58,729 nucleotides of DNA, taken from positions 1-58,729 of the forward strand of contig JAFGKO010000009.1 of assembly GCA_016928525.1 (NCBI GenBank), given 5' to 3'. The position numbers were made by a program, and so were the translations under genes. The notes beneath the pieces are model-generated. The model made no database searches, was not told the DNA's origin, and saw only the letters and a program-made list of their open reading frames with translations. Shown in pieces: positions 2,960 through 27,140 of this stretch; the stretch's first letter is position 1; each line of letters begins with the position of its first letter. Origin of the DNA: Anaerolineales bacterium (lineage in GTDB: Bacteria; Chloroflexota; Anaerolineae; Anaerolineales; Villigracilaceae).

Positions 2960-2986
2960 ATTTGTTTGGGTATAGAAGGAATCCTT

Positions 2987-4906: not shown

Positions 4907-4950
4907 CCAGACTGCCCGTAAAATCTAATTACAAACAAGACCCTATCTGA

Positions 4951-6421
<1,471 letters not shown>

Positions 6422-9514: not shown

Positions 9515-9563
9515 GGCTTCGAATCGTGGCGATAGGTTTCGCCGCGATAAAAGTGAGTTTGAT

Positions 9564-9584
9564 AGTCTATTATTTCTATAGACT
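9564..9584 (+). promoter_or_regulatory. Inverted-repeat operator upstream of the first PstS-like gene
   Basis: Perfect inverted repeat AGTCTAT-N7-ATAGACT. The ATAGACT half-site matches the two copies at the Rrf2 gene start. Confidence 0.5.
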
Positions 9585-9615
9585 TTATTGGCTAGTTGAT
9601 AGCCCGGAGGCAAAT

Positions 9616-10572: not shown

Positions 10573-10621
10573 GCAAAAGCCACCTTTTTCATATTTTATA
10601 TCCCACTAAGGAGAACTCCAA

Positions 10622-11374
10622 ATGGAATTGACAATCTTGCTCTACGTGTTGGTCGGTTTTTTGGCCCAAACTATCGATGGTGCATTAGGTATGGCCTACG
10701 GGGTCAGTTCGAACACATTCCTGCTCAGCGTTGGCGTGTCGCCAGCAATTGCCAGCGCCAGCGTACATGTGGCGGAAACATTTACGACCGCTGTATCGGG
10801 TGTTTCACACTGGCGTTTGGGAAATGTGGACAAAGATCTGTTCAAAAAGTTGATCATCCCCGGTGTGTTGGGAGCAATCCTCGGCGCTTATATCCTCACA
10901 CAAATTGATGGCAATGTCATCAAACCCTACATCTCAGCCTATCTGCTGGTCATGGGCATTCTCATCCTGGTAAAAGCATTACGCAGCGATCATAAAGATA
11001 GACAAGTGAATGATCATATCAGCATCCTGGGCGTGGTCGGTGGTTTCTTCGATGCCATCGGTGGTGGCGGTTGGGGTCCCATTGTGACCACTACGCTTGT
11101 GGCACGTGGCAATAATCCGCGCTTCACGATTGGCTCGGTCAATCTATCTGAATTCTTCGTGACATTCTCGCAGTCAGTGGTCTTCATCTTTACCCTTTCC
11201 TCCGACCTGCTTTCCAATTGGCAGGTGATCATAGGTCTGTTGGTTGGTGGTGTAATTGCTGCCCCTTTCGCTGCACTGGTGACAAAAAAATTGCCCGTAC
11301 GCGCGTTGATGGGCATGGTCGGTCTGCTCATTATTGGGTTGAGCATAAGGACGATCGTGCTGGCGTTTATATAA
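10622..11374 (+). CDS. TauE/SafE-family anion permease
   Basis: Polytopic protein of 250 aa with about eight hydrophobic segments, of the TauE/SafE (DUF81) family of sulfite, sulfoacetate or other small-anion exporters. The motif FLAQTIDGALGMAYG at the N-terminus and the GGGGWGP motif near residue 145 are family hallmarks. AAGGAG precedes the start. It lies between the two PstS-like genes in the Rrf2-led cluster, which links the cluster to sulfur-type anions as plausibly as to phosphate. The substrate is not determined. Confidence 0.85.
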   Translation: MELTILLYVLVGFLAQTIDGALGMAYGVSSNTFLLSVGVSPAIASASVHVAETFTTAVSGVSHWRLGNVDKDLFKKLIIPGVLGAILGAYILTQIDGNVIKPYISAYLLVMGILILVKALRSDHKDRQVNDHISILGVVGGFFDAIGGGGWGPIVTTTLVARGNNPRFTIGSVNLSEFFVTFSQSVVFIFTLSSDLLSNWQVIIGLLVGGVIAAPFAALVTKKLPVRALMGMVGLLIIGLSIRTIVLAFI

Positions 11375-11473
11375 CCATTTCCTGATGAACAACTAGAGGC
11401 CTCCCTTTAGATAGTCTGGCGAAAGCTCACCGTGTAATGAACTTTCACTTTCAAAAAAAAGGAGAATGAACCA

Positions 11474-12436
11474 ATGTCTAAAATATCTCGTTTGACCCTG
11501 ACAATCGCCGTTGCGATTGCCCTGTTGCTCCCGGCTTGTGGTGCGGAGACCGCAGGTTCTGATTCGGGGGAAATGAAAGGCACGCTGACTATTTCAGGCG
11601 CCTTTGCCCTGTACCCGATGATGACACGCTGGGCAGAAGAGTATCAGAGATTAAACCCGGGCGTGCAGTTCGATATTTCGGCGGGAGGCGCAGGCAAAGG
11701 CATGACCGACGCCCTCTCCGGCGCAGTGGATATCGGCATGGTCTCTCGCGATGTGACAGCCGAAGAAGAGGCCCAGGGCGCTTACTGGGTGCCCGTTACC
11801 AAGGATGCTGTTTTCCCAGTGGTCAACGCTCAGAATCCCGTCTTGGTGGATTTAATGAAAATCGGCTTGAGTCAAGATGTCTTCGAAGGCATCTTCATCA
11901 CTGGTGAGATCAAAACCTGGGGACAGGCCATCGGCAAACCCGAAATCACGGATGAAATCCACGTCTATACGCGCTCGGATGCCTGTGGCGCAGCTGAAAC
12001 CTGGGCCAAGTACTTGGGCGGCAAACAAGAGAACTTGCTGGGCATCGGTGTGTTTGGCGATCCCGGCTTGCTGGATGCGGTCATCAAAGACCCACAGGGC
12101 ATTGGTTTCAACAACCTGAACTATGCCTACGATATGGCCAGTGGAGCAGCAGTGACGGGCGCGGCCATCCTGCCGATCGATGTCAATGGCAACAGCCAGA
12201 TCGACCCTGATGAGACTCTGACAACCAAGGATGAAGCAGTGGCAGCCGTGGCGAATGGTAGATATCCCTCCCCGCCTGCTCGCGTGGAGAACCTGGTTAC
12301 CAATGGGAAACCGGAAGGCTTGGTCCAGGCTTTCATCCAGTGGATCTTGACAGGTGGACAGCAATATCTCGAAGAAGCAGGCTATATCCCGCTACCGCCT
12401 GATCAAGTGGATGCTTCCTTGCTGAAAGTTCAATGA
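11474..12436 (+). CDS. pstS: PstS-like substrate-binding lipoprotein (second copy)
   Basis: Binding protein of 320 aa, paralogous to the one at 9616. The signal ends LLLPAC; the block GTLTISGAFALYPMMTRW and the GGAGKGMTDALSGAVDIG and YTRSDACGAAETW segments are shared. The Shine-Dalgarno is AAAGGAGAA. Its TGA overlaps the ATG of the permease gene (ATGA), so it belongs directly to the importer. Phosphate is the likely substrate by homology. The Rrf2 and TauE/SafE context leaves room for a different oxyanion. Confidence 0.85.
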   Translation: MSKISRLTLTIAVAIALLLPACGAETAGSDSGEMKGTLTISGAFALYPMMTRWAEEYQRLNPGVQFDISAGGAGKGMTDALSGAVDIGMVSRDVTAEEEAQGAYWVPVTKDAVFPVVNAQNPVLVDLMKIGLSQDVFEGIFITGEIKTWGQAIGKPEITDEIHVYTRSDACGAAETWAKYLGGKQENLLGIGVFGDPGLLDAVIKDPQGIGFNNLNYAYDMASGAAVTGAAILPIDVNGNSQIDPDETLTTKDEAVAAVANGRYPSPPARVENLVTNGKPEGLVQAFIQWILTGGQQYLEEAGYIPLPPDQVDASLLKVQ

Positions 12437-13434
12437 GGAGAATTAATCCTGTAGCGGAAACCGGGAGGGATGAAAAGGGGGCGAAAGTCCATCTTTCGCC
12501 CCTCCCGGCACGCCGGGATCAGGATCGCTCGGCTAGCCGGACGCTTTTCTTGCTGACGCTCCTGCCGCCTGCCCTGGTGCTGGTCATCCTGATCGCCCTG
12601 GCTGCCCGTGCCTGGCCTATCCTGGGTGAACATACGCTCTGGGAACTGCTTGCGGGCACCGAATGGAAGCCATTGCAAGGATCATTCGGCTTTTGGCCCT
12701 TTATCGCTGGCACAGTTTGGGTGACGGTTGTAGCAGTAGCCCTCGCCATCCCACCCTGCCTGCTGACCGCCATCTATTTGTCGGAATACGCGCGCCAATC
12801 CATACGTGCGATCATGAAGCCATTACTCGACCTGCTGGCAGCCATCCCCTCGGTGGTCTATGGCGTGTGGGGCATGGTGGCAATTGTGCCCTGGGTGGAA
12901 CATACTCTGGTGCCTTTCTTCAGGCGCTGGCTGGGTTTCTTGCCTTTCTTTGTCAGCGCCAACCCGACCGGCTTCAGCATACTGGCAGGCGGGATCGTCC
13001 TGGCGGTCATGATTGCGCCTTTCATCATTGCTGTAACCTACGAGGTCATGGCTACGGTACCAGAAGGTTTGCGTCAGGCCTCGCTGGCGTTGGGCGCCAC
13101 TCGTTGGCAGACGGTCAAATCCGCGGTGTTGCCGCAGACGTTGCCGGGCATCCTGGCCGGGATTATACTGGGCTCGTCGCGTGCGCTCGGGGAAACGATG
13201 GCGGTGCTGATGGTGGTCGGGAACGTCCCGCAGGTGCCGGGGTCCGTGTTTGATGCGGCCTATCCGCTTCCGGCGCTGATCGCCAACAATTATGGCGAGA
13301 TGATGTCCATCCCTATGTACGACGCGGCGTTGATGGGCGCGGCGTTGATTTTGCTGGTCATTGTGCTGGTCTTCAACGTCGCATCCACGCTCGTCCTGCG
13401 GCGCATCATGGGGCGGGTCAGGAGGGCCTGGTAA
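12433..13434 (+). CDS. pstC: PstC-like ABC importer permease
   Basis: Inner-membrane permease, 333 aa, about six helices. The ABC permease EAA-type loop lies near residues 200-225 (EGLRQASLALGATRWQTVK), and PSVVYGVWG near residue 140 is typical of PstC. The start overlaps the preceding stop (ATGA). The first 35 residues are charged and unusual, and part of them is encoded by a strong hairpin (12478-12502), so the true start could lie further in. It pairs with the PstA-like protein that follows. Confidence 0.87.
   Translation: MRRINPVAETGRDEKGAKVHLSPLPARRDQDRSASRTLFLLTLLPPALVLVILIALAARAWPILGEHTLWELLAGTEWKPLQGSFGFWPFIAGTVWVTVVAVALAIPPCLLTAIYLSEYARQSIRAIMKPLLDLLAAIPSVVYGVWGMVAIVPWVEHTLVPFFRRWLGFLPFFVSANPTGFSILAGGIVLAVMIAPFIIAVTYEVMATVPEGLRQASLALGATRWQTVKSAVLPQTLPGILAGIILGSSRALGETMAVLMVVGNVPQVPGSVFDAAYPLPALIANNYGEMMSIPMYDAALMGAALILLVIVLVFNVASTLVLRRIMGRVRRAW
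12478..12502 (+). other. Stem-loop at the 5' end of the PstC-like gene
   Basis: GGGGCGAAAG (12478-12487) and CTTTCGCCCC (12493-12502) form a perfect 10-bp stem with a 5-nt loop. It lies just after the end of the binding-protein gene. In importer operons such hairpins often raise the level of the binding protein over the permease. Confidence 0.6.
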
Positions 13435-14294
13435 TGAAAAGAGGCTGGCGTAAACGCCATATCGAGGAAGCCATTTTGAATGGGCTAATGCTGATCTCGT
13501 TCCTGGTGGTGGCAGGCGCGCTGGTGCTGATCCTGGGCACGGTGCTGGTCAAAGGCTTGCCTGCGCTGAACTGGCAGATGGTCACGCAAACGCCCAAAGG
13601 CGGCTATTACCTGGGCAAGGAAGGCGGCATCTTGAACGCCATCCTCGGCTCGTTGTACCTGGCCGGCGGCGGGACGCTCCTAGCGCTGATCTTCAGCCTG
13701 CCGATCGCGCTCTACCTGGAAACTTATGTAAGCAAATCACCCTGGGGACGCTATGTGCGACTGTCTCTGGACGTGTTGTGGGGCATCCCCTCTATCGTGT
13801 ACGGCGCATTTGGATTCACGCTCATGCTCAGCCTGGGCTTGCGCGCTTCCCTGTTAGGCGGAATCATTGCCCTGGCGCTGCTTGAACTACCCATCATGAC
13901 GCGTGCTATGGATGAGGTGATCCGCCTGATGCCCGCTGACCTGGAACAGGCTTCTCTGGCGTTGGGCTCGACACGCCTGGAAACCGCCGTCCACGTCGTC
14001 ACGCGCCAGATGCTGCCCGGCATCCTGACTGCCATCCTGCTGGCTTTCGGGCGCGGCATTGGCGATGCGGCCTCGGTGTTATTCACCGCAGGGTACACCG
14101 ACCGTATTCCGACCTCACTAATGCGCCCGGTCGCCTCGCTGCCGCTGGCCGTCTTCTTCCAATTGGGCACGCCCTTCCCGGAAGTGCAGCAACGCGCCTA
14201 TGCCTCCGCGTTGATCCTTACCGTGATTGTGCTGGCTATCAGCCTGGGTTCGCGTTGGGTGGCGGCGCGGATGGGAAAATACACTGTGAAATGA
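13434..14294 (+). CDS. pstA: PstA-like ABC importer permease
   Basis: Second permease of the importer, 286 aa with about six helices. The conserved LDVLWGIPSIVYGAFG segment lies near residue 115 and the EAA loop near residues 165-190 (LMPADLEQASLALGSTRLE). Its start overlaps the PstC stop by one base (TAATG). Heterodimeric PstC/PstA permeases are the hallmark of phosphate importers and argue against single-permease tungstate (Tup) systems. Confidence 0.88.
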   Translation: MKRGWRKRHIEEAILNGLMLISFLVVAGALVLILGTVLVKGLPALNWQMVTQTPKGGYYLGKEGGILNAILGSLYLAGGGTLLALIFSLPIALYLETYVSKSPWGRYVRLSLDVLWGIPSIVYGAFGFTLMLSLGLRASLLGGIIALALLELPIMTRAMDEVIRLMPADLEQASLALGSTRLETAVHVVTRQMLPGILTAILLAFGRGIGDAASVLFTAGYTDRIPTSLMRPVASLPLAVFFQLGTPFPEVQQRAYASALILTVIVLAISLGSRWVAARMGKYTVK

Positions 14295-14308
14295 CGAGGA
14301 AGGAACTT

Positions 14309-15061
14309 ATGGAACCCCACATTCAAATCCGAAACCTGGATGCCTATTACAATAGTCACCAGGCTTTGAAGGGCATCAATCTGGAGATTCCCAAGCAACA
14401 GATCACGGTCATCATGGGACCCTCGGGTTGCGGGAAAACCACCTTGCTCAAAAGCTTGAACCGCTTCCTCGAGCTGACTGATGGCACGCGTATCACCGGA
14501 GAAGTCCTGATCGATAACGAGAACGTATACGCGCGCGAAATGGACGTGACCGAGATCCGCAAGAAAGCTGGCCTGCTGGCGCAACGACCTTACCCGCTGC
14601 CGATGTCCATCTACGATAACGTGGCCTATGGTATGCGCATCCACAACATGAAAAAAGGACGTAACTTGGAGGTGGCTGTCCGGCATTATTTGGAAGTTGC
14701 CGGTCTTTGGGACGAGGTCAAGGATCGCCTGCATGCCCCCGCTATGGGACTGTCCATTGGCCAGCAACAACGCTTATGCCTGGCGCGCGGGCTGGCTGTC
14801 GAGCCGGAAATTCTGTTGGGAGACGAGCCCACCTCGGCGCTCGATCCCATCTCCGCTCAACACATCGAGGGTCGCTTGCAAGACTTGAAAGAAAAATATA
14901 CCATCGTGCTGGTGACTCATATCCTGCGCCAGGCCAAACGGTTGGCAGATTATGTCATTTTTATGTATTTGGGAGAAGTGGTGGAAGCCGGTCCAGCGCA
15001 GGAAGTCTTCGAGAATCCCAAGGAGGCGCGCACGCGGGCATATTTGGAAGGACAGTTTTAG
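14309..15061 (+). CDS. pstB: PstB-like ABC importer ATPase
   Basis: ATPase of 250 aa. Walker A is GPSGCGKTT, the signature SIGQQQRLCLARGL is slightly degenerate, and Walker B is ILLGDEPTSALD followed by the switch His in LVTH. The phosphate-type feature LLKSLNRFLEL after Walker A is present. I chose ATG 14309, preceded by GAGGAAGG, over ATG 14291, which overlaps the PstA stop but has no ribosome site. It ends the importer operon. Confidence 0.9.
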   Translation: MEPHIQIRNLDAYYNSHQALKGINLEIPKQQITVIMGPSGCGKTTLLKSLNRFLELTDGTRITGEVLIDNENVYAREMDVTEIRKKAGLLAQRPYPLPMSIYDNVAYGMRIHNMKKGRNLEVAVRHYLEVAGLWDEVKDRLHAPAMGLSIGQQQRLCLARGLAVEPEILLGDEPTSALDPISAQHIEGRLQDLKEKYTIVLVTHILRQAKRLADYVIFMYLGEVVEAGPAQEVFENPKEARTRAYLEGQF

Positions 15062-15219: not shown

Positions 15220-15235
15220 TGTGATATTTATCACA
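15220..15235 (+). promoter_or_regulatory. Crp/Fnr-family operator TGTGA-N6-TCACA
   Basis: Perfect palindromic half-sites TGTGA and TCACA with spacer TATTTA. It lies just downstream of the predicted start point, so it would repress the 15181 promoter, or activate another promoter nearer the gene. It shares its half-sites with those at 39523, 45119 and 48197. Confidence 0.6.
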
Positions 15236-15331
15236 AATCCGTCTAAGTTCGCGCCAAAGGACGGTATCTGGGAGCATCTTGGAGCGCCATCTCAACTTTT
15301 GTGGCCTTATTTGGGTCACGGAGGAGGGCCT

Positions 15332-17404
15332 ATGCAACGTGCTTCCATCGCAAGTGTCTGCCCGTATTGTGGGGTCGGGTGTGGCTTATATATCACCACC
15401 GAAGCGGGCAAGATCACCGGCCTGGACTACATGACCGAGCATCCCGTCAATGAGGGAGCCTTATGTCCAAAGGGAAATGCCAGTTTGGACATTGTCTATC
15501 ACCATGACAGACTGCTCTATCCCATGCAGCGGGTGGACGGTCGCCTCGAACGCATCTCGTGGACAGAGGCGCTGACCACTGTTGCAGCGCGCCTGCACCG
15601 CATCCAGGCCGAGTCCGGGCCGGATGCGCTGGGTTTCCTGGCCTCGGCCAAGGCGACCAACGAGGAGAATTATCTCTTCCAGAAACTGGCGCGCATGCTC
15701 GGGACCAACAACATCGACCATTGCGCCCGTCTCTGACACAGTCCCACAGTGGCCGGTCTGGCCGCTACCCTGGGCTCGGGCGCAATGACCAATCCCATCG
15801 TCGATCTGGCCAACGCTGACTGCATCTTTGTGATCGGCTCCAACTTTGCCGAGAACCACCCTATCGTCTCACGTTGGGTGCTGGATGCGAAACAGCGCGG
15901 CGCGACGCTGATTGTGGCTGACCCGCGTTTCACTCCTACCGCCTGGTCGGCAGACTTGTTCCTGCCGCTTTTACCCGGCACTGACACGTCGCTCGTCAAC
16001 GCGATGATGAATGTCATCATTGCAGAGGGATTGTGGAATGAGGAGTTTGTTGAGGAACGCGTGGATGGCTTTGATGACCTGTGCGATATGGTCTCGCTAT
16101 ACCCGCCAGAGCGCGCCGCAAAAATTACGGGTGTTCCAGCAGAGGATATTGTCAAGGCGGCGCGGGCGTATGCCACAGCAGAGGCCTCATCTATTGTGTA
16201 TTGCATGGGCATCACCCAACACACCTGTGGCACCGAGACGGTCAAGAATCTGGCCAACCTTGCCATGTTGACCGGACAGATCGGCCGGCCCGGTACAGGT
16301 GTCAACCCGCTGCGCGGCCAGGACAACGTGCAAGGTGCCTGCGATATGGGCGCGCTACCCAATGTCTACCCCGGATACCAGCCGGTGACGGATGAAGCCA
16401 ACCGCACCAGCTTTGCCCGCGCCTGGGGGCTTGCGCCGGAAGACCTGTCGCTCAAGAACGGGCTGACGCTGGTCGAAATGACGCAGGCCATTGACGAAGG
16501 AAAACTGCGCGGCATGGTCATCCTGGGAGAGAATCCGGTTGTGGGCGACCCGAATGCCGCGCATGTGACGGAAGCGCTTAAAAAGCTGGACTTCCTGGCC
16601 GTGATCGAAATCTTCCCCTCCGAAACAACTGAACTGGCGCATGTGATCTTGCCAGCGGCGTCGTTCGCCGAGAAACGCGGCACCAAGACCGCCACCGACC
16701 GCCGTGTGCAGTGGCTGGAACGTGCCGTCGAACCGGTTGGCGAAGCCATGGCCGACTGGAAGATCATCTGTCGCCTGGCGGCGCGCATGGGCTTCGAGAA
16801 GGCCTTCACCTATCCGCACGAGGAGGCCATCTTCTACGAAATCCGGGCGATGGTGCTTAGTTATGCCGGTCTCAGCCCGGAGCGATTGCAGAACACAATT
16901 GGAGGCATCCCCTGGCCATGCCTGGACACAGACGATCCTGGTATGCCGATCCTGTACACCAAATCCTTCAACCGCCCTGGCGGAAAAGGGAAAATGTCGC
17001 CAGTAGAATATCTCCCGCCTGCCGAAGCCACATCTGACGAATATCCGCTGGTGCTGACTAGCGGGCGCGTCGTGCTGCACTACAACGCCGGAGCAATGAC
17101 GCGCCGCACGCGTGCCTTGCAAGAGCGCGAGCCGGAACTGTTCGTGCAGGTCAACCCGCAGACCGCTGAGTCCTACGGGGTTCGGGAACTGGCCGAGGCG
17201 TTCGTTACAACGCGCAGGGGAGAAGCCAAAGCGAAGGTGCGCATTACTCGTCGTATCCCGCCCGGGGTGCTGTTCATGCCTTTCCATTTCCCTGAAATGA
17301 ACTTCCTGACCAATGACGCGCTCGACCCGACTGCCAAGATTCCCGAATACAAGGTGGCCGCCTGCCGCATTCGGCCGGTTGAGGAAGGAGGCGGCCATGC
17401 CTAA
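15332..17404 (+). CDS. fdhF: Selenocysteine-containing formate dehydrogenase, catalytic subunit
   Basis: Molybdenum or tungsten bis-MGD formate dehydrogenase of the FdhF type, oxidising formate to CO2 for the adjacent hydrogenase. The frame is open from ATG 15332 (Shine-Dalgarno GGAGGAGG) to 17404 except for TGA at codon 135. That is where FdhF-type enzymes carry catalytic Sec or Cys: the context reads HCARL-[TGA]-HSPTVAGL. With Sec the product is 690 aa, a normal length. The N-terminal 4Fe-4S site is CPYCGVGC with the last Cys in GALCPKG; the C-terminal molybdopterin-binding domain starts near residue 565. No Tat signal is present, so it acts in the cytoplasm. The next gene overlaps it by 8 nt. 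A SECIS-like hairpin follows the TGA. Confidence 0.95.
15734..15736 (+). other. In-frame TGA read as selenocysteine (formate dehydrogenase residue 135)
   Basis: TGA aligns with the catalytic Sec140 of E. coli FdhF (context VUHGPSVAGL there, LUHSPTVAGL here). Both flanks are highly conserved and in the same frame. Confidence 0.93.
15748..15766 (+). promoter_or_regulatory. Bacterial SECIS hairpin of the formate dehydrogenase gene
   Basis: AGTGGCC pairs with GGCCGCT (one G-T pair) around the loop GGTCT. The loop begins 18 nt after the TGA. From memory, GGUCU is the apical sequence recognised by SelB in the E. coli fdhF element, at the same spacing, and the Moorella element has a similar GCCGGUCUGGC core. 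Confidence 0.88.
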
Positions 17405-17919: not shown

Positions 17920-19662
17920 ATGCTGCTCGACACCAAGACAACCATCTCCCAAGATTTACAGGAGCGCCTGCGGTCTCCCTATCTGCGGATCGACGAAATC
18001 CGTGAGGACATGATCATTGCCAGCGCTTCGCCCCAGGACCTTGTGCCTGCTGTCCGTTTTATCCACGATATGCTCGGCGGACGGTTCATGACCTCTGCTG
18101 GGGCAGATATGCGTCCATTAAATGGCATGTACCAGGTGACGCAGTTGTTTGCGCTGGACAAAGAGAAGGCCTTCCTGGTGTTGAACGTGGAAATCGACCC
18201 GGCGCAGGCCAGCATCCCAAGCATTGTGGGTATCATCCCCGGTGCGGGCTGGGCCGAGCGCGAAGTGTACGACATGATCGGCGTGGAGCCTATCGGCCAT
18301 CCCGACCCGCGCCGCCTGGTGCTGCCCGACGACTGGCCGGATAATGTTCATCCGCTGCGCAAGGATTTCAAGGTGGACGAACGTCCGCCCGCCGCGCCGG
18401 AGAACAAGGTGCGCATCAATATCCCGCCCAAAGATGCCAGCGTGCTGCCGATTGGCCCGTTCTTCCCCACGCTGGAAGAGCCAGTCTTCATCAACCTGTT
18501 CGTGCATGGCGAAGAGATCGTTGGCATGGATTATCGCGGTTTCTACGGACATCGCGGCGTGGAGAAACTGGCTGATGCAGATTTGACCTACCAGCAGGTG
18601 CCTTACATCGCCGAACGCATCTGCGGCATATGAGGGTGTGTTCACAGTACGTGTTACTGTCAAGCCATTGAAAAAGCCGCAGGGATCGAAGTCCCTCGCC
18701 GCGCCCGTTATATCCGCACCATCCTGCTCGAGCTGGAACGCATCCACAGTCACTTGCTGTGGGTCGGGCTGGCCTGTCACTTCATCGGGTTCGACACGCT
18801 CTTCATGCAGACCTGGCGTATCCGCGAGCCGGTCATGTGGCTGACCGAGTACCTGACCGGAAACCGCAAAACCTACGGCATGAACAAGGTCGGCGGCGTG
18901 GCGCGTGACCTGCCGCCTGACTATGTGGAACGAATCCTGCCTGTGGTGGGCAAAATAGAAACCGAAGTATTGGGAGCAGTGGATGCCATCCTGGGCGATT
19001 CATCCTTGCAGGCGCGCCTGGCAGGGACGGGCATTATCACGCCCGAAGACGCGCGCGCCTTCTGTGTGTTGGGTCCCACTGCACGCGGTTCCGGCGTGGA
19101 CATCGATGCCCGCCGCGACCATCCTTTTGCGGCCTACGACGAAGTGGAGTTCGAAGTCTGTGTGGAGCAGGGCTGCGACATCTGGGCGCGTACGCTGGTG
19201 CGTATCCGCGAGACGATTGAAGCGATCAAGATAATCCGCCAACTCCTGGATAAAATGCCGGGCGGCCCGGTGATGGCCGAGTTCGACGAAATCCCACCTT
19301 ACCGGGTGGCTGTCAGTTCGGTGGAAGCGCCGCGCGGCGAAGTCCATCATTACGCCATGACTGGCCCGGACAACCGCCCATACCGCTGGCGGGTGCGCGC
19401 CCCATCCTACAACAACCTGCAAGTCGTCCCGTCCATGTTGCGCGGGCAAAAGATCGCAGATGCGCCCATTAGTGTGGGCAGCCTTGATCCGTGCTTCTCC
19501 TGCACCGAGCGCATGGCCGTGATCGATAAGGACAGCGGCGCGGTTAAAGTTTACAAACAGCAAGAATTGCTGGATATGTTCAAGAAGTCTAAAGAGTCGA
19601 ACAGGTCTGACGAGTCTGACCTGTCAGACCTGTCAGACATGGAGACGGAATCCGATGTTTAG
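17920..19662 (+). CDS. hycE: HycE-like NiFe-hydrogenase large subunit with candidate selenocysteine
   Basis: Group 4 (Ech/Hyc-type) hydrogenase catalytic subunit with a NuoC-like N-terminal domain (residues 1-170) fused to the NuoD/HycE domain. One in-frame TGA at codon 238 interrupts it. The frame before (AERICGI) and after (GCVHSTCYCQAIEKAAG) is perfectly conserved, so the N-terminal motif RxCGxC reads RICGI-[TGA]. With readthrough the product is 580 aa, the size of HycE. The C-terminal motif DPCFSCTERM (Cys525, Cys528) is all cysteine. Cleavage after Arg531 by the HycI-like protease would remove a 49-residue tail. A perfect hairpin follows the TGA. A nonsense mutation is the alternative, but the same operon already encodes a selenoprotein. 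Confidence 0.9.
18631..18633 (+). other. In-frame TGA, candidate selenocysteine 238 of the hydrogenase large subunit
   Basis: TGA replaces the second cysteine of the N-terminal RxCGxC motif, a Ni-Fe bridging ligand in known structures (Cys68 in D. gigas numbering). Known NiFeSe hydrogenases carry Sec in the C-terminal motif instead. Confidence 0.72.
18644..18660 (+). promoter_or_regulatory. Candidate SECIS hairpin in the hydrogenase gene
   Basis: ACAGTA (18644-18649) and TACTGT (18655-18660) form a perfect 6-bp stem around CGTGT. The stem can extend by TT/AA beyond one C-C mismatch. The loop starts 17 nt after the TGA and has G as its second base, which fits the loose bacterial SECIS rules. 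It lacks the GGTCT loop of the formate dehydrogenase element. Confidence 0.62.
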
Positions 19663-20191
19663 ACACACGATTTCCGAACTCAAAGAAGCCCTGGTCTGCC
19701 TGAAGGCCGGGCAGGTGACGCTGCATTATCCCTTCGAGCCAAGCCCGGTGGAAGATACCTTCCGTGGTCGGCCGGTGCTGAACACACGCAAGTGCATGTG
19801 TTGCGGCGCCTGCGCCAATGCCTGCCCGGCGCGTTTGATTACACTAACTGACAGCGACGGCATCCGCGCCTTGCATTTCGAACTGGGACGCTGCACGTAC
19901 TGCGGCAATTGCCGCGATGTCTGCCCACAGGAGGCCATCGAGATGTCGACGCAGTTCGAGACATCTACCGCCAACCCTGAGGATCTGGTCATCCACGCCG
20001 AGTTTTACCTGCAAACCTGCCGCGAATGCGGCGCAGTGATCGCTACACAGCGCGAAGTGGACGTGGTGCGCGAAAAATTGAGTAACAGCCCGGTGCATAC
20101 AAATTACGCTGATTATTTCGATCTCTGTATTACCTGTCGCCGCAAACAGGCCATCCATGCCCCGTCCCTGACGTTGGAGGTGGTGCCATGA
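19655..20191 (+). CDS. hycF: HycF/NuoI-like ferredoxin subunit
   Basis: Two-cluster 4Fe-4S protein of 178 aa that relays electrons within the hydrogenase arm. The motifs are CMCCGACANACP and CTYCGNCRDVCP, both ending in the usual proline. A C-terminal extension has two further pairs, CRECG and CITCR, likely a small zinc-ribbon fold as in HycF-type proteins. The start overlaps the large-subunit stop by 8 nt; the following gene overlaps its stop by 4 nt. Confidence 0.88.
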   Translation: MFRHTISELKEALVCLKAGQVTLHYPFEPSPVEDTFRGRPVLNTRKCMCCGACANACPARLITLTDSDGIRALHFELGRCTYCGNCRDVCPQEAIEMSTQFETSTANPEDLVIHAEFYLQTCRECGAVIATQREVDVVREKLSNSPVHTNYADYFDLCITCRRKQAIHAPSLTLEVVP

Positions 20192-20655
20192 GCAACACAC
20201 TCGATAAGGCACTCAATTGGTGCTTCAAGAAATCCATCTGGGTCTATCACGTCAACGCGGGCGGGTGCAACGGCTGTGATATCGAAATCCTGGATGTGCT
20301 CACACCTTACTACGATGTGGAACGCTTCGGCATCAAGCTGGTGCATACGCCCCGTCATGCGGATGCGCTGCTCGTGGCCGGTCCGGTCACACGCCAGGTG
20401 CGGGAAAGGGTCTTGCGCATTTACGAGGCAACCCCAGATCCCAAACTGGTCGTTGGGGTGGGGTCTTGCGCCATGGGTGGCGGTATCTGGCATAACTCCT
20501 ATGCCACCCTGGGTGGCCTGGGTAACGTGTTGCCGGTCGCCATCTACATCCCTGGCTGCCCGCCTCGTCCGGAAGCGATTTTGTATGGCGTAGCCCAGGC
20601 GCTTGGATTGGTGCCGCAACAGGTGAAGAAACAGGAATACCTGGAGGTGACATGA
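20188..20655 (+). CDS. hycG: HycG/NuoB-like hydrogenase small subunit
   Basis: Small subunit of 155 aa carrying the proximal 4Fe-4S cluster next to the NiFe site. The NuoB-type motifs are GGCNGCDIEI, VGSCAMGGG and PGCPPRPEAI. There is no signal peptide, as expected for a cytoplasm-facing group 4 enzyme. ATGA overlap with the gene before and a 4-nt overlap with the gene after indicate translational coupling. Confidence 0.93.
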   Translation: MSNTLDKALNWCFKKSIWVYHVNAGGCNGCDIEILDVLTPYYDVERFGIKLVHTPRHADALLVAGPVTRQVRERVLRIYEATPDPKLVVGVGSCAMGGGIWHNSYATLGGLGNVLPVAIYIPGCPPRPEAILYGVAQALGLVPQQVKKQEYLEVT

Positions 20656-21593
20656 ATTGGTCATCCCTTCCCTTAGCTTTGCTCTATACGCTCATCTTCC
20701 CCGGTTTCCTGTTTACGGCGGTGATGGGATTGCTGTTGACCTGGGTGGACCGCAAGGTAACGGCGGTCATCCAGAGCCGCATGGGACCACCCTGGTTCCA
20801 GCCTTTTGCTGACGTCGGCAAGTTGTTGTTCAAGCGCATGATCGTCCCGAAAGGCGTGCGGACGGTGGGTTTCATCGGCGCGCCGCTGCTTTCAGTGGCG
20901 GGCGCAACTCTGGCCTCCGTGATTGTCTTCCTGGCGCTATTCGACCCGACTGTCGGCTTCATGGGCGACCTGATCGTGTTGGTCTATCTTTCGATGATGC
21001 CCGCCATTGCGCTGATTATCGGCGGGGCCTCATCACGCAGTCCGTTTGGGGCGATTGGGGCCAGCCGCGAGATGAGCATGGTGCTGGCTTATGAAGTCGG
21101 CTTCCTGCTGGCAGTTATAACGGTCATCATGCAGACCGGTTCGATCCGCTTTGCTGAAATCCTGGCTTACCAGGCCCAGAACGGCGCAGTGCTATGGAGC
21201 CTGTCCGGTTTCATTGCTGCGGCGGTTATGATCCTGTGTATGCAGGCCAAGTTGGGATTCCTGCCTTTCGACATCAGTGAAGCTGACACTGAATTGATCG
21301 GTGGCCCATTGGCTGAATATTCCGGTGTAGGTTTGGCGCTTTTCAAACTTTCACGGGCGATGATGTTCTTCTTCCTGCCTGTTTTCATTGTGCTGATCTT
21401 CACTGGCGCGCCGCAACTGAACCTGCTCTCAATCCTGGGTTTTCTAGTGAAGTTGCTGACGGTGCTGGTGCTGCTGATCCTGATCAAGATCACGCACGCT
21501 CGCCTGCGTCTCGACCAGGCCCTGCACTTCTTCTGGACGAAGGTTGGTCTGGCGGGGTTAGTTGCCCTGGCGTTCGCCTCGCTGGGATTGTAG
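20652..21593 (+). CDS. hycD: HycD/NuoH-like membrane subunit
   Basis: Membrane anchor of 313 aa with about eight helices, homologous to NuoH and HycD. The conserved stretch DRKVTAVIQSRMGPPWFQPF follows the first helix, and LPFDISEADTELIGGP near residue 205 carries the acidic residues of the NuoH E-channel. It connects the soluble hydrogenase arm to the antiporter-like subunits and is thought to take part in ion pumping. Confidence 0.93.
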   Translation: MNWSSLPLALLYTLIFPGFLFTAVMGLLLTWVDRKVTAVIQSRMGPPWFQPFADVGKLLFKRMIVPKGVRTVGFIGAPLLSVAGATLASVIVFLALFDPTVGFMGDLIVLVYLSMMPAIALIIGGASSRSPFGAIGASREMSMVLAYEVGFLLAVITVIMQTGSIRFAEILAYQAQNGAVLWSLSGFIAAAVMILCMQAKLGFLPFDISEADTELIGGPLAEYSGVGLALFKLSRAMMFFFLPVFIVLIFTGAPQLNLLSILGFLVKLLTVLVLLILIKITHARLRLDQALHFFWTKVGLAGLVALAFASLGL

Positions 21594-21606
21594 GAAGGAG
21601 GCCACC

Positions 21607-23022
21607 ATGCTTGCAATCGCTACCTTTGGCATCCCCATCCTGGGCTCCATATTGACCTTACTTGCAGACCGCATCAACGGACTGCTGCGCAACGTTCTGG
21701 CCGTGTTGACGGTCGCGGCGACGCTGGCCTGTGCCCTGCTGCTCATCCCGATCTCAACCGAAGCAAAGACCATTATGCTCGGCCCTTCGACCATTCCCGG
21801 TTTTGGTTTCAACTTCATCGTGGATGGGTTAGGCGTATACGTTGCGATCACATCCGCACTGATCGGTTTGTTGATCGTGGTGTACTCGGTCGGCTACATG
21901 CGTGACTATGAACACCTGGGCGAGTATTACTTCCTGGTGGTGCTCTTCCTGGGCGCCATGATGGGACTGGTGCTCTCGGCCAACCTGCTGCTCATTTACA
22001 TTTTCTGGGAAATCACCGCTATCTGCTCCTGGCGTTTGATCGGTTTCTTCCGTGACCCGGCCCACCTGCGCAGCGCGGACACAGCCCTGCTGATGACAGT
22101 CTTCGGTTCGTTCTTCATGCTGGTCGGCATGGAGATGGTCTGGCACGAGACCGGCACGCTGACTGTGGCCGCCATCCGCGGGCATACCATCAGTGACCTG
22201 GCGATGTTCTTCATGTTCATCGGCATCCTGGCTAAATCTGCTCAAGTACCGCTGCAAATCTGGCTGCCGGCCGCGGGTGTGGCTCCTTCCCCTGTCACCG
22301 CTCTCCTTCATGCGGCAGTGCTGGTGGTGATCGGCGTCTTTGCCTTTGCGCGCATCTTCATCGGCGCCTTCAACCTGCCTGCCAACTGGCAGACCTACAC
22401 GTCCATCGTCGCTACGCTCACTATCCTGATCGCTGGCGGCGCTGCGTTGGTGGAGAATAACGCTAAACGCATTCTGGCTTATTCCACGCTGGGACAATTG
22501 GCTTACGTCTATCTCGGATTTGCCAGCATGACTACCATTGGCATCGTCGGTGGACTGGTCTTCCTGCTGGCGCACAGTTTAGCCAAAGCAGGACTGTTCT
22601 TATGCGTGGGCATCATCGAGCACAAGACCCACACCAAGGACATCCGTGAATTAGGCGGCATGTTCAAAAGCATGCCGGTCACAGCCGTGGCCTTTATCCT
22701 GTGTGCGCTGACCATCATTGGCTTCCCACCCTCGGCTGGTTTCATCGGCAAGATGATGATCATCATGGGCGCGCTACAGGGCGGCAAGGTTGTCTATGCG
22801 GCGTTGGCGGTGCTGGGAGCGCTGCTTAGCATGGGCTACATGCTGCGCCTGTTCAACGCTGTTTTTCTCGGCCATAACCCGCGTTGGAAAGACGTCCGCG
22901 AGGGCACGCCCGGCATGGTGCTGACTGTGGTCGCGTTTGCTGTGCTCTCCATTTTGGCTGGTCTGGCTGCCACGCCGCTGCTGGATGTCGTCCAGGTGTT
23001 GGTCAGCCAGATGACAGGGTGA
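21607..23022 (+). CDS. Antiporter-type membrane subunit (HyfB/NuoN-like)
   Basis: Polytopic protein of 471 aa with about fourteen helices of the proton-antiporter family shared by complex I and Hyf/Mrp systems. Conserved parts are FWEITAICSWRLIGF (around residue 135), the lysine and histidine segment AKSAQVPLQIWLPAA (about 215) and the NAKRILAYSTLGQLAY block (about 285). The start is ATG 21607 behind GGAAGGAGG, not the upstream ATG inside the preceding gene. It implies ion translocation coupled to formate oxidation or H2 evolution. Confidence 0.9.
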   Translation: MLAIATFGIPILGSILTLLADRINGLLRNVLAVLTVAATLACALLLIPISTEAKTIMLGPSTIPGFGFNFIVDGLGVYVAITSALIGLLIVVYSVGYMRDYEHLGEYYFLVVLFLGAMMGLVLSANLLLIYIFWEITAICSWRLIGFFRDPAHLRSADTALLMTVFGSFFMLVGMEMVWHETGTLTVAAIRGHTISDLAMFFMFIGILAKSAQVPLQIWLPAAGVAPSPVTALLHAAVLVVIGVFAFARIFIGAFNLPANWQTYTSIVATLTILIAGGAALVENNAKRILAYSTLGQLAYVYLGFASMTTIGIVGGLVFLLAHSLAKAGLFLCVGIIEHKTHTKDIRELGGMFKSMPVTAVAFILCALTIIGFPPSAGFIGKMMIIMGALQGGKVVYAALAVLGALLSMGYMLRLFNAVFLGHNPRWKDVREGTPGMVLTVVAFAVLSILAGLAATPLLDVVQVLVSQMTG

Positions 23023-23026
23023 CATT

Positions 23027-25426
23027 ATGAACACACTCCTTTTCTACCCAATCGCTGTGCCCATCCTGGTCGGGTTGGTGTGCTTGCTAACGCGGAATCA
23101 GGCCAAAGTCCTGCGTGAAGCGCTGCTGGTCCTCACGACGATAGCCGCGCTGGCGTTGTCCGTCTTCCTGTTCGTCCAGCCCGACCTGTCCATCTCCATC
23201 CGTTGGCTGCAACTCACCCCAAGCCTGGCCATCGGTTTCGACCTGCGCACATCGGCTTTTGCCCGCTTCACGCTCGTCATCATTGCAGTCTTCGGCCTGT
23301 TGGCGGGGCTGTACTCGCTGCCCTTCATGCGCACACACCCGCGCCATCGCGAATATTATGCTTATTACCTGATGGCTTTGGGCGTGACGGGCGGCGCAGT
23401 GTTGGCAGGCAACCTGGTGCTGCTGCTGTTCTTCTGGGAGTTGCACGGCTTCCTGCTCTTCTTGATGGCCGGAATCAATGGGGACTCAGCGGTGCCGGCC
23501 TCTAAACGGACCTTGATGATCGCGGGCATTGGCGACCTGACACTGATGCTGGGCATTGGTCTGCTCTGGACGCAGACCGGCTCGCTGTCCATCAGTGGGC
23601 TCGCAACTCAAGCCCTGGTCCCCTCAACCCCGCTGCTGGGAGCGGCCTTCATCCTGATGGTTTTGGGTGCGTTCGCCAAGGGCGGCGTGATGCCGCTGCA
23701 CACCTGGATCCCGGCGATTTCAACTGAAACTCCCCTGACGATCATGAGTTACTTCACTTCGCTGGACAAGATGCTCGGCTTCTACCTGCTGACGGTGCTG
23801 TCGTTGCAAATCTTCGATATCTCCGGTTGGGCGGGCTGGTTCCTGATGACGGTCGGCGCAGTGACGCTGCTGGGCGGCGTGCTGATGGCCGTCATCCAGA
23901 AGGATTTCCGCCGGATGCTGGCTTTCCATTCGGTTTCGCAGGTCGGGTATATGGTCATCGGCATCGGTACAGGGACAGCACTGGGCGTGATTGGCGGGCT
24001 GTTCCACCTATTGAACATGATCATCGTCAAAGGCAGCCTGTACCTGTGTGGGGGCTCGGTGCAATATCGCACTGGCAAGAACCAGTTTGATGAAATGGGT
24101 GGCCTGGCTAGAGCCATGCCATGGACCTTCGTCGCCACGTTGATCGCTTCGCTGGCGATTGCGGGTGTGCCGCCGCTGAATGCCTTTGTTTCGAAGTGGA
24201 TGGTCTACCAGGGCATCATCGAACGCGGCGGGGTGGCTTTTCCCATTTTCCTGCTGGTCGCCATGTTCGGCTCTGCGCTGACACTGGCCTCCTTCATGAA
24301 GTTGCTCTACTCGATGTTCTGGGGTGACAAACCCGCCGGACTGGGCGAAGTCAAAGAATCCCCCTGGACGATGGCACTGCCTATCTTTATATTGGGACTG
24401 ATTGCAGTAGGCTTTGGCGTGTTCTATCACTGGCCGGTGACCGCGTTCCTTGCGCCCATCTTGGGACCGGGAACGCAAGTCACAGCGTTTGGATTGTGGA
24501 ATTCCGGGTTGGCGACTGTGCTGTTGGTTGTCAGCCTGTTGATCGGCCTGGTCATTTACTGGGCGGGACGTCCGCGCCGGAGCGTGGAAGCGGACGTCTT
24601 CCTGGGCGGCGAAGCGCTCGATCCCGAAGTCTATCACGTGCCCGGTACGCACTTCTACGGCCCGGTCAAGAACATGGACGGGCTGAGACAGGCCTACGAT
24701 ATGGCCGACCGCGGCGTGTTCGACTTGTACAAGCAGGGCGCCCAATTGATCAAGCGTGCTTCGCGCTGGGTTTACCAGTACATCGACCAGGCGTTGGCCG
24801 ATTTCTACCAGGAAGTCATCCCGGCGCTGCTCTCGCTGATCGGAGAAATCTTGCATGTGTTGAATGCGCGCATGGTGCTGACACATATCCTGTGGGCGCT
24901 ATATGCGTTGGGTGGTTTGGCCATTCTGATCGTGCCGGACCAGCACGATATCCTGACGCTGACACGTGTCATTGCCTGTGTGGGTATGATCGGCTGGGCC
25001 TTCCTGGCCTGGGTCGAGACCGATTTGCAGCGTATGCTGGTTCTGGCGGCCACCAGCCAGTTGGGGTTTGTGGTGCTGGGCATTACGCTTTCGTCTGCGG
25101 TGGCGCTGTCTTACCTGGCGACGGGTAGTATCGCTTTGATGGTGTTGTTTGTCGTGACGTATTTCATCCGCCGCAGCCTGCATACCTCGCGCATTGACCA
25201 GATGTCCGGCCTGGCCGGCAAGATGCCGGTGGCCTTTGTCTTCTTCGTGCTGGCGGCGCTGTGGCTTTCCGGCCTGCCGCCTTTCGGCAGTTTCTTCAGC
25301 AAGTTCCGACTGGGTGTGGCGGCGGGCGAGATCAGCCCTTTCCTGACGATTGCTATCACCGGCGCCGCCATCCTGACGCTGGCGTACTTGCTGCGACCCA
25401 TCCGTAGATTCTTGCGGAATGAATGA
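23027..25426 (+). CDS. Long antiporter-type subunit with a second partial antiporter module
   Basis: Membrane protein of 799 aa. Residues 1-480 form a full antiporter module: FWELHGFLLFLMAG, GAFAKGGVMPLHTWIPAIS and QKDFRRMLAFHSVSQVGYM are present. Residues 500-620 carry a helix and an amphipathic stretch. Residues 640-799 look like the second half of another antiporter module, with ETDLQRMLVLAATSQLGFV and GLPPFGSFFSKF echoing the conserved parts of the first. Such a 1.5-module fusion resembles the large subunits of Mrp-like or HyfF-type systems. It is the last subunit of the operon before a strong hairpin. Confidence 0.85.
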   Translation: MNTLLFYPIAVPILVGLVCLLTRNQAKVLREALLVLTTIAALALSVFLFVQPDLSISIRWLQLTPSLAIGFDLRTSAFARFTLVIIAVFGLLAGLYSLPFMRTHPRHREYYAYYLMALGVTGGAVLAGNLVLLLFFWELHGFLLFLMAGINGDSAVPASKRTLMIAGIGDLTLMLGIGLLWTQTGSLSISGLATQALVPSTPLLGAAFILMVLGAFAKGGVMPLHTWIPAISTETPLTIMSYFTSLDKMLGFYLLTVLSLQIFDISGWAGWFLMTVGAVTLLGGVLMAVIQKDFRRMLAFHSVSQVGYMVIGIGTGTALGVIGGLFHLLNMIIVKGSLYLCGGSVQYRTGKNQFDEMGGLARAMPWTFVATLIASLAIAGVPPLNAFVSKWMVYQGIIERGGVAFPIFLLVAMFGSALTLASFMKLLYSMFWGDKPAGLGEVKESPWTMALPIFILGLIAVGFGVFYHWPVTAFLAPILGPGTQVTAFGLWNSGLATVLLVVSLLIGLVIYWAGRPRRSVEADVFLGGEALDPEVYHVPGTHFYGPVKNMDGLRQAYDMADRGVFDLYKQGAQLIKRASRWVYQYIDQALADFYQEVIPALLSLIGEILHVLNARMVLTHILWALYALGGLAILIVPDQHDILTLTRVIACVGMIGWAFLAWVETDLQRMLVLAATSQLGFVVLGITLSSAVALSYLATGSIALMVLFVVTYFIRRSLHTSRIDQMSGLAGKMPVAFVFFVLAALWLSGLPPFGSFFSKFRLGVAAGEISPFLTIAITGAAILTLAYLLRPIRRFLRNE

Positions 25427-26281: not shown

Positions 26282-27140
26282 TGAGAGTGTTTTGAAAATG
26301 GTTGAGTAAACTTGTAGGTGTGAACAGACAAGCCTACCCAACCGATCTCAATGATAATCAGTGGGCGCTAATTGCGCCACTGTTACCCAAAAGGTGCACC
26401 TTGCGTGGACGACCTCGGACCTGGAGCTATCGTGACATTATCGATGCTATTTTGTATGTTGTTCGGGGTGGATGTGGGTGGCGACTGATGCCACACGATC
26501 TCCCGCCCTGGCAAACCGTGTATGGTTACTACTGGCAATGGCGTAATAATGGTTTGTGGCAACAAATCAATACACTCCTGGTTGAAAAAGTACGCGTGAA
26601 GCAAGGCCGAAAACCACAACCAAGCGCTGGCATCATTGACAGTCAAAGCGTCAAGACCTCGGAAGGTGGCGAAGCCCGCGGCGTGGACGTCTATAAGCAG
26701 GTTTCTGGGCGTAAAAGACACATCGTTGTAGATACTTTAGGCCTGTTACTGATCGTTTTGGTGCATAGCGCCAATATGCCAGATGGCAATGGCGGCAAAC
26801 TTGTGCTGGCAAAGTTATTTGAGCGTATCAAACACAGCGTCTACAATCGTTGGTGTCGCTTGAAACTGATTTGGGCTGATGGCGCATACGAACATATCAT
26901 CGCCTGGGTCAAGCAACAATGCGGCTGGAAATTGTACATCGTCCACCTGAAGCCAAAGGCTTTCAACTCCTGCCGCGACGCTGGATTGTCGAACGCACTT
27001 TCGGGTGGTTTGGACGCTACAGACGCCTGAGTAGAGATTATGAACACCAAACGCTTTCCAGCGAATCAATGGTGTATCTGGCTAGCATTCACCGCATGTT
27101 GCGGCTACTGACCAGTGATCCTTGAATTTCAAAACACTCT
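26282..27140 (+). mobile_element. IS5-family insertion sequence, about 859 bp
   Basis: Terminal inverted repeats GAGAGTGTTTTGAAA (26283-26297) and TTTCAAAACACTCTC (27127-27141) are perfect. CTA at 26279-26281 and at 27141-27143 fits a 3-bp target duplication overlapping the right end. Removing one copy plus the IS restores the pentapeptide frame. It encodes one transposase with a frame break, so transposition is probably lost unless frameshifting occurs. Confidence 0.88.
26302..27125 (+). pseudogene. IS5-family transposase, frame-broken
   Basis: DDE transposase of the IS5 family: the DDE residues are in IIDSQSVKT, WADGAYE and WIVERTFGW. The first part reads from TTG 26302, and the second part (ending LTSDP at 27125) is in the -1 frame. 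The break lies around 26920-26940, where GWKL in one frame meets LEIVHRPPEAKGF in the other. No A6G-type slippery heptamer is visible there. Programmed frameshifting is therefore unlikely and a small deletion is the simpler reading. Confidence 0.85.

What the first reader, a model, noticed from the sequence alone, without database searches (positions are those of the whole stretch)
18625..18666. Selenocysteine at the N-terminal RxCGxC motif of a group 4 NiFe-hydrogenase
Seen: one TGA splits an otherwise perfect HycE-like frame exactly at the second cysteine of RICGxC; a perfect 6-bp hairpin (ACAGTA/TACTGT, loop CGTGT) starts 11 nt after it. The downstream residues are highly conserved. Known: NiFeSe hydrogenases described so far carry Sec in the C-terminal DPCxxC motif, as a terminal Ni ligand. 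Here DPCFSC is normal and Sec would be the Ni-Fe bridging ligand of the other motif. The stem also recodes HSTA to HSTC, adding cysteines (GCVHSTCYC) beside the active site. Inferred: a new type of selenium-containing hydrogenase with altered oxygen tolerance or catalytic bias. I do not recall such a position being described.
Basis: partly seen in the sequence, partly recalled or inferred. Interest (0 to 1): 0.95.

Follow-up and report, generated by a model that had tools for sequence, protein, structure and literature searches.

The report
Hydrogenase with selenocysteine at bridging site
Bacteria of at least two phyla appear to build selenocysteine into a hydrogen-making enzyme at one of the four positions that hold its nickel-iron centre, a different position from the one used in the selenium-containing hydrogenases known so far.

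Summary
An in-frame TGA (18631-18633) replaces the second Cys of RICGxC in a HycE-like large subunit, inside a formate hydrogenlyase-type operon. It is no sequencing error: the same TGA occurs in 19 further genomes, 4 Chloroflexota and 15 of 82 of an unnamed phylum. All 20 copies keep one 6-bp stem whose 5-nt loop starts 16 nt after the UGA, as the bacterial SECIS model asks; 0 of 11 Cys homologues read has it. Of 174 columns fixed in residue but free in codon, 7 keep one codon in all 19 complete genes; all 7 are the TGA, the codon before it and the hairpin region. SelA is found in all 19 genomes, SelB in 15, a clear tRNA-Sec in 14; two have neither of the latter. One shared Sec clade is rejected (AU p 5e-7). 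The 2026 selenoproteome review's table lists no such family and ten open-access searches found none. Sec at this ligand has been engineered in E. coli Hyd-1 and Hyd-2. That Sec is inserted, and what it does, is inferred, not measured.

The parts
17920..19662 (+). hycE-like [NiFe]-hydrogenase large subunit, read through one UGA (580 aa)
   Evidence: PF00329 + PF00374 + PF00346; best PDB hit by sequence and by fold is E. coli HycE 7z0s_E
18622..18633 (+). N-terminal C-G-I-U: Cys235 (TGC 18622-18624) and Sec238 (TGA 18631-18633)
   Evidence: aligns to CGIC of HycE and to an invariant Cys column
18628..18630 (+). ATA codon directly before the UGA, ATA in 20 of 20 Sec copies
18644..18660 (+). SECIS-like hairpin, stem 18644-18649/18655-18660, loop CGTGT 18650-18654
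   Evidence: constraints of the bacterial model in PMC13188914
19492..19503 (+). C-terminal motif Cys525-x-x-Cys528 (DPCFSC), both Cys
15221..17404 (+). fdhF-like formate dehydrogenase with its own in-frame TGA at 15734-15736 (U172) followed by a hairpin with loop GGTCT
   Evidence: z 0.62, not remarkable by energy; TIGR01591 over cut-off; TGA also in L001 and L004
17313..17918 (+). HycB/HydN-like 4Fe-4S protein (ORF as listed; it overlaps fdhF, so the real start is probably downstream)
19655..20191 (+). hycF-like ferredoxin subunit, ends in TGA
20188..20655 (+). hycG/NuoB-like small subunit
20652..21593 (+). hycD/NuoH-like membrane subunit
21562..23022 (+). hyfD/antiporter-like membrane subunit
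23027..25426 (+). antiporter-like membrane subunit, 799 aa
25503..25982 (+). hycI-like maturation protease
   Evidence: TIGR00142 108 bits, cut-off 119; TIGR00072 over cut-off

Best explanation
The operon encodes a membrane-bound formate hydrogenlyase-type complex (group 4 [NiFe]-hydrogenase plus formate dehydrogenase). Its large subunit is a selenoprotein. SelB with Sec-tRNA reads UGA238 as selenocysteine, directed by the hairpin that begins 10 nt downstream. Sec238 takes the place of the second Cys of RxCGxC, by homology the N-terminal thiolate that bridges Ni and Fe, giving a Ni-(mu-Se)-Fe centre; the other three ligands (Cys235, Cys525, Cys528) stay Cys. Shown: conserved UGA in two phyla, codon-level selection on the hairpin, Sec genes in most relatives, homology and predicted fold match to HycE. 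Inferred: that Sec (not another residue) is inserted, that it bridges the metals, and that selenium makes the site easier to reactivate after oxidation and/or changes catalytic bias in H2 evolution from formate.
For: Same TGA in 20 copies. Stem, 5-nt loop with G second and 16-nt spacer in 20/20 Sec vs full stem in 0/11 Cys, against the model. 7 of 174 invariant degenerate columns are single-codon, all at TGA and hairpin; 1 of 145 in 11 Cys genes, far away. SelB full length and over cut-off, tRNA-Sec at 70-72 bits in all 4 Chloroflexota TGA genomes; SelA over cut-off in 19 of 19 TGA genomes, ringing in 1 of 14 controls, E. coli. Cys at this column in 119 of the best 120 (of 7855) relatives; the 120th lacks the N-terminal half and starts just after the site. 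7 of 67 and 33 of 118 further database proteins start at [VM]HST right after the TGA site. TGA is an ordinary stop for 6 of 13 genes around.
Against: No protein or selenium measurement. In the unnamed phylum SelB was over cut-off in 11 and a clear tRNA-Sec found in 10 of 15 TGA genomes; G820 and G801 have neither (G801 only a 47-bit tRNA hit at the cut-off). SelA is also in both Cys genomes tested, G780 and G713. The stem never varies, so there is no compensatory change. The computed minimum fold of the 45 nt from the UGA holds the stem in 15 of 20; L001, L004, L083, L084, L087 prefer another fold, L003 is at -6.6 against the model's -7.5, and the hairpin alone is only about -4.5 kcal/mol. Sec at each of the four Cys positions in E. 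coli Hyd-2 lowered activity, so an advantage here is not evident.
Confidence: 0.9

Rival explanations
1. UGA is read as cysteine (or another residue) by a suppressor tRNA, so the protein is an ordinary [NiFe] enzyme.
For: Cys fits the site; such tRNAs are known (recalled). In G820 and G801 neither SelB nor a clear tRNA-Sec was found.
Against: SelA in 19/19 TGA genomes and SelB in 15/19; hairpin of SECIS form under codon-level selection; neighbouring genes end in TGA; classical FDH Sec codon in the same operon in window, L001 and L004.
Confidence: 0.05
2. The UGA is a real stop or a switch: the gene is broken or makes two pieces, or is read through only when selenium is plentiful.
For: Gene callers split it; a selenium-dependent switch is a natural by-product of Sec decoding.
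Against: Both halves are conserved and carry ligands of one metal site; all 19 complete genes align as one protein; GTT, not a start codon, is the next Val codon in the 5 Chloroflexota-type copies.
Confidence: 0.04
3. Sequencing or assembly error, or codon bias by chance.
For: Named relatives are metagenome-assembled; the hairpin alone arises in about 10% of recodings of this gene.
Against: 20 copies in two phyla with the same TGA and stem.
Confidence: 0.005

Closest known systems
[NiFeSe]-hydrogenases (HysA of sulfate reducers; FruA/VhuU of methanogens)
   Same: Natural [NiFe]-hydrogenase large subunit with one Ni ligand replaced by Sec.
   Different: There Sec is the first position of the C-terminal DPCxxC motif, a terminal Ni ligand (UxxC in PMC13188914 Table 1; place in the sequence and ligand role recalled). 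Here DPCxxC is all Cys and Sec is the second position of the N-terminal motif; group 4, not groups 1 or 3. The review says the known ones occur exclusively in sulfate reducers and methanogens.
E. coli formate hydrogenlyase HycE (7z0s/7z0t)
   Same: Best sequence and fold match; same kinds of partner subunits; Sec-containing FDH in the same complex (PMC9474812, passages).
   Different: HycE has Cys at this position.
Engineered Cys-to-Sec variants of E. coli Hyd-1 (Evans 2021, not held; known from citing papers and recall) and Hyd-2 (Evans 2024, PMC11212049)
   Same: Each of the four Ni-binding Cys was replaced by Sec in turn, including residue 64 of HybC, by motif order the equivalent of this site (my inference); all four Hyd-2 variants were active.
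   Different: Laboratory constructs read from TAG, in group 1 enzymes; the paper singles out only C546U (C-terminal position) as markedly changed.
Cys-containing HycE-like subunits
   Same: Nearest seven are 69-73% identical.
   Different: Cys at the column; where DNA was read (11 copies), TGC/TGT and no full stem.

Membership tests
Group 4 [NiFe]-hydrogenase, formate hydrogenlyase (HycE) type | Large subunit with Complex I 30K + 49K domains and both CxxC motifs | tested here: met
   one of four Cys is Sec
Group 4 [NiFe]-hydrogenase, formate hydrogenlyase (HycE) type | Operon with small subunit, ferredoxin, NuoH-like and antiporter-like membrane subunits, formate dehydrogenase, HycI | tested here: met
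   window. Hydrogenase subunits also in L001-L004; FDH and HycI beside them only in L001 and L004, not within the fetched stretches of L002 and L003
Group 4 [NiFe]-hydrogenase, formate hydrogenlyase (HycE) type | H2 evolution from formate | not testable with these tools
   needs biochemistry
[NiFeSe]-hydrogenase as described (Sec in C-terminal DPCxxC) | Sec at first position of DPCxxC | tested here: not met
   DPCFSC in window; NF045518 HysA 44 bits against cut-off 780
[NiFeSe]-hydrogenase as described (Sec in C-terminal DPCxxC) | Selenium bound to Ni | not testable with these tools
   inferred from homology only
Bacterial selenoprotein gene | In-frame UGA aligned with conserved Cys, with UGA homologues in other species | tested here: met
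Bacterial selenoprotein gene | bSECIS: stem 4-16 bp, loop 3-9 nt with G in first two positions, spacing 16-37 nt, MFE <= -7.5 | tested here: met
   window: all four (MFE -8.1 with the stem). All 20: stem, loop, spacing 20/20; MFE 19/20; the minimum fold holds the stem in 15/20
Bacterial selenoprotein gene | selA, selB, selC in the genome | tested here: inconclusive
   window's genome not held; relatives with TGA: selA 19/19, selB 15/19, clear tRNA-Sec 14/19
Bacterial selenoprotein gene | Se detected in the protein | not testable with these tools
   75Se or mass spectrometry needed

The most novel reading that the evidence does not exclude
A natural class of [NiFe]-hydrogenase with a bridging selenolate between Ni and Fe, in group 4 enzymes of at least two bacterial phyla, gained or lost repeatedly because the conserved protein motif HSTxYC can itself be encoded as a SECIS stem.
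Probability: 0.85. Interest if true: 0.9.

Novelty: new variant of a known kind. Interest (0 to 1): 0.86.

Why it matters
Selenium in natural hydrogenases has been tied to the terminal, proton-relaying Ni ligand, and explanations of faster H2 production, low product inhibition and O2 recovery rest on that position. Evolution using a different ligand, with Sec and Cys interchanging more than once, in complexes related to respiratory complex I, gives a natural test of which effects depend on position. It adds a selenoprotein subfamily that gene callers now cut in two, so these hydrogenases are miscounted in metagenomes. It also offers a neat genetic case: a protein motif whose coding can double as the SECIS.

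Tried and rejected
Covariation of the stem: the stem is identical in all 20 copies, so it cannot be tested; codon-level constraint was used instead. Folding the window alone: z -1.29, uninformative. Single-origin reading: Sec rows held as one clade are rejected (AU p 4.86e-7), though one ancient Sec state with several losses to Cys is not excluded, because the count of changes cannot tell gain from loss; an HSTxYC-encoded stem makes convergence plausible. SelB with the TGA form inside the unnamed phylum is no sharper than background (11 of 15 against 46 of 67), so it supports capacity, not linkage. The tRNA-Sec family's own cut-off (47 bits) proved loose: 6 of 7 Cys genomes and 5 of 14 controls pass it, so only hits at E below 1e-9 and above 60 bits are called clear. 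Rfam on the window found nothing. The TGA+hairpin pattern, one mismatch allowed, was found in 1 of 400 genomes drawn from the phylum of G001 (G002-G004 were not among the rows with a match), 0 of 291 of the phylum of G009 and, exact, in no viral contig. Plasmid tblastn gave nothing above 60% identity. In the class search 30 places were fetched and read out of those in 68 matching genomes of 396 (1 TGA, 29 Cys at the codon); in the order search 20 places out of 42 matching genomes of 400 (2 TGA, 18 Cys). Several unfetched rows report a TGA somewhere inside the match; fetched rows with the same flag, other than G001 and G002, had Cys at this codon, but the unfetched ones were not read. L092 was left out of the trees and codon counts (its gene is in two pieces); L030, L031, L012 were left out of the second and third trees as long branches; L033, L061, L066 were asked for in the first tree but not picked up by the script. 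The codon count includes the TGA column itself, fixed by the choice of rows; without it 6 of 173. In the 14-gene subset 9 of 234 columns are single-codon, 7 of them here; in the 5 close Chloroflexota-type genes 92 of 358 are, so that subset alone says little.

Full report
WHAT IS THERE. The frame 17920-19662 is one hydrogenase large subunit of 580 aa interrupted once, by TGA 18631-18633. It carries Pfam Complex1_30kDa, NiFeSe_Hases and Complex1_49kDa. Its closest solved relative by sequence is HycE of the E. coli formate hydrogenlyase (7z0s_E, E 1e-143). An AlphaFold model made with Cys in place of Sec (mean pLDDT 83.3; the C-terminal motif stretch 527-532 is under 50) matches the same chain first (TM 0.85/0.92). 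The TGA aligns with the second Cys of CGxC; Cys235, Cys525 and Cys528 are the other three ligands by alignment. That the second Cys of this motif bridges Ni and Fe is established for [NiFe]-hydrogenases and is recalled here; PMC12134894 (passages) states that two of the four Cys bridge, and PMC9474812 (passages) names Cys531 of FHL as a terminal ligand. The gene sits in an operon with an FDH that has its own Sec codon, hycF, hycG, hycD, two antiporter-like subunits and a hycI-like protease, the parts of a formate hydrogenlyase.

IT IS CONSERVED. The one genome-contig scan gave 12 loci; 5 carry TGA at this codon (L001-L004 Chloroflexota; L010, a 'bacterium' of unnamed phylum) and 7 carry TGC/TGT. 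A search of the 82 genomes in the phylum of L010 (G005) found 16 with a match at 1e-100; 15 have the TGA, and the 16th, 45% identical, has none. The family of L004's genome (152 genomes) has 10 matches at 1e-120: 4 with one TGA, 6 with none. Among 396 genomes of the class and 400 of the order, the matches read at sequence level (30 and 20 places) were Cys except in G001 and G002. So the form is rare in Chloroflexota and the rule among close homologues in the unnamed phylum. In the protein database gene callers cut the gene in two: 7 of 67 new entries and 33 of 118 start at [VM]HST right behind the TGA site. Relatives in these lists that still have the motif show Cys there: 119 of 119's list of 120, 4 of 4 and 66 of 66 in the others. 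These lists are the best 120 of many thousands, and some short proteins may be contig ends.

IT IS UNDER SELECTION AS RNA. All 20 TGA copies read ATA TGA GGn nnn GTn CAC AGT ACG nnn TAC TGT CAr GC. The stem ACAGTA/TACTGT, a 5-nt loop with G second, and 16 nt between UGA and loop meet the bacterial SECIS model quoted in PMC13188914 (passages). Its -7.5 kcal/mol rule is met by 19 of 20, but the computed minimum fold of the 45 nt contains the stem in only 15 of 20, and the bare hairpin is worth about -4.5. No Cys copy read has the full stem (0 of 11). Over 19 complete Sec genes, 174 columns are invariant in residue yet free in codon; only 7 use one codon in all: the Ile before the UGA, the UGA itself, and His, Ser, Thr, Tyr, Cys of the hairpin region. 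In 11 Cys genes 1 of 145 such columns is fixed, elsewhere. The codon in the loop varies (Cys, Ala, Gly). A caution: because HSTxYC is easily encoded as this stem, 2-20% of synonymous recodings of a single Sec gene make it by chance (513 of 5000 for the window). The argument rests on all copies together.

THE DECODING MACHINERY EXISTS. No genome is held for the window. In the four Chloroflexota TGA genomes SelB is full length and over cut-off, and tRNA-Sec scores 70-72 bits. Of the seven Cys-carrying genomes in the same calls one has SelB over cut-off. In the unnamed phylum SelB is over cut-off in 11 of 15 TGA genomes (in G005 the match covers only its first 354 positions) and tRNA-Sec at E below 1e-9 in 10 of 15. 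A second look at 7 genomes, two of them already positive, added only 45-49-bit hits. G820 and G801 have neither SelB nor a clear tRNA-Sec. SelA is over cut-off in all 19 TGA genomes, and also in two Cys ones tested. The gaps fit incomplete assemblies but are not proved to be that. TGA is a normal stop for 6 of 13 genes around, so no change of code is needed.

EVOLUTION. On a 52-row tree Sec and Cys change at least 3 times, 2 forced by supported branches, and a single Sec clade is rejected (AU p 4.86e-7). In the Chloroflexota-type part, the Cys rows P0004, P0005, P0007 and L060 fall inside the supported set that holds the 5 Sec rows, and L060 still shows 4 of 6 stem pairs, as if Sec had reverted to Cys. 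A further group of truncated proteins (P0155, P0156, P0164, P0167) may be a third Sec lineage, unproved without DNA.

HOW IT WORKS. Most likely SelB delivers Sec at codon 238, and the Ni-Fe site is assembled with a bridging selenolate. In the window, L001 and L004 the partner FDH has a Sec codon too. In the unnamed phylum the FDH-like neighbour has Asp, Tyr, His or Thr at the Mo-ligand position in 10 of 10 loci where it is covered, of 14 looked at, so Sec in this operon is not tied to a Sec FDH. What selenium buys is open. In E. coli Hyd-2, Sec at residues 61, 64, 546 or 549 gave active but weaker enzyme, and only C546U is reported as markedly changed, with bias and H2 inhibition altered (PMC11212049, section 2 read in full). 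For Hyd-1 a review says the natural [NiFeSe] position raised O2 tolerance while H2 oxidation fell at every position (PMC9961374, section 3.1 read). The likeliest gain, easier reactivation after oxidation or better H2 release in a low-driving-force reaction, is a guess at perhaps 40%.

KNOWN OR NEW. PMC13188914 Table 1 (section 7, parts 1 and 2 of 3 read), said to cover 119 families or subfamilies, has FrhA and MvhA/VhuU with UxxC as its hydrogenase large subunits. NCBIfam names no family for this protein: the listed hits are all below cut-off (best 25 of 27 shown). Ten library searches returned no paper whose listing or opened passages describe it; most listed papers were not opened. Checked by passages: PMC7117926, PMC5736913, PMC9312934, PMC11291895, PMC12013277, PMC1088965, PMC4607533, PMC13111528, PMC8406227. 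Most subscription papers and all bioRxiv preprints were out of reach, so an earlier report cannot be excluded. I file it as a new variant of a known kind: a formate hydrogenlyase-type group 4 [NiFe]-hydrogenase and a bacterial selenoprotein, but not a [NiFeSe]-hydrogenase as described so far.

Noticed in passing
L010, L105-L110, L113, L114, L117: FDH-like molybdoprotein near the Sec hydrogenase lacks Cys/Sec at the aligned Mo-ligand position (Asp, Tyr, His or Thr in 10 of 10 covered loci) and scores below the FDH-alpha cut-off in the 3 tested. L109 and L110 have one stop elsewhere in the match, not looked into.
   Followed up: partly
window 15734-15770: FDH Sec codon with a 7-bp hairpin, loop GGTCT (z 0.62); the E. 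coli fdhF SECIS loop is similar (recalled). The FDH match in L001 holds a second stop besides this TGA, not looked into.
   Followed up: partly
window 18628-18630: The codon before the UGA is ATA in all 20 Sec copies, while the Ile three codons upstream is ATC/ATT in 18 of 19 and the same Ile in 8 of 11 Cys genes; an upstream context effect on Sec insertion is possible.
   Followed up: no
L060 (G713), motif region: Cys copy that nests among Sec copies retains 4 of 6 stem pairs, a possible SECIS relic.
   Followed up: partly
P0171: Truncated HycE half attributed to a Gallionellales bacterium is 77% identical to the Chloroflexota form: transfer or mis-binning.
   Followed up: no
G010:C122:18412-20406: SelB match in a 1045-aa open frame directly followed by tRNA-Sec; G822 has a 1035-aa SelB frame.
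   Followed up: no
window 2966-6387 and 9526-15061: Beta-glucosidases and two PstS-like binding proteins with PstC/A/B-like genes lie upstream of the operon; a PstS-like gene also precedes fdhF in L001 and L004, so an oxyanion transporter may belong to the neighbourhood.
   Followed up: no
window 26302-27030: IS4/5-type transposase just downstream of the operon.
   Followed up: no
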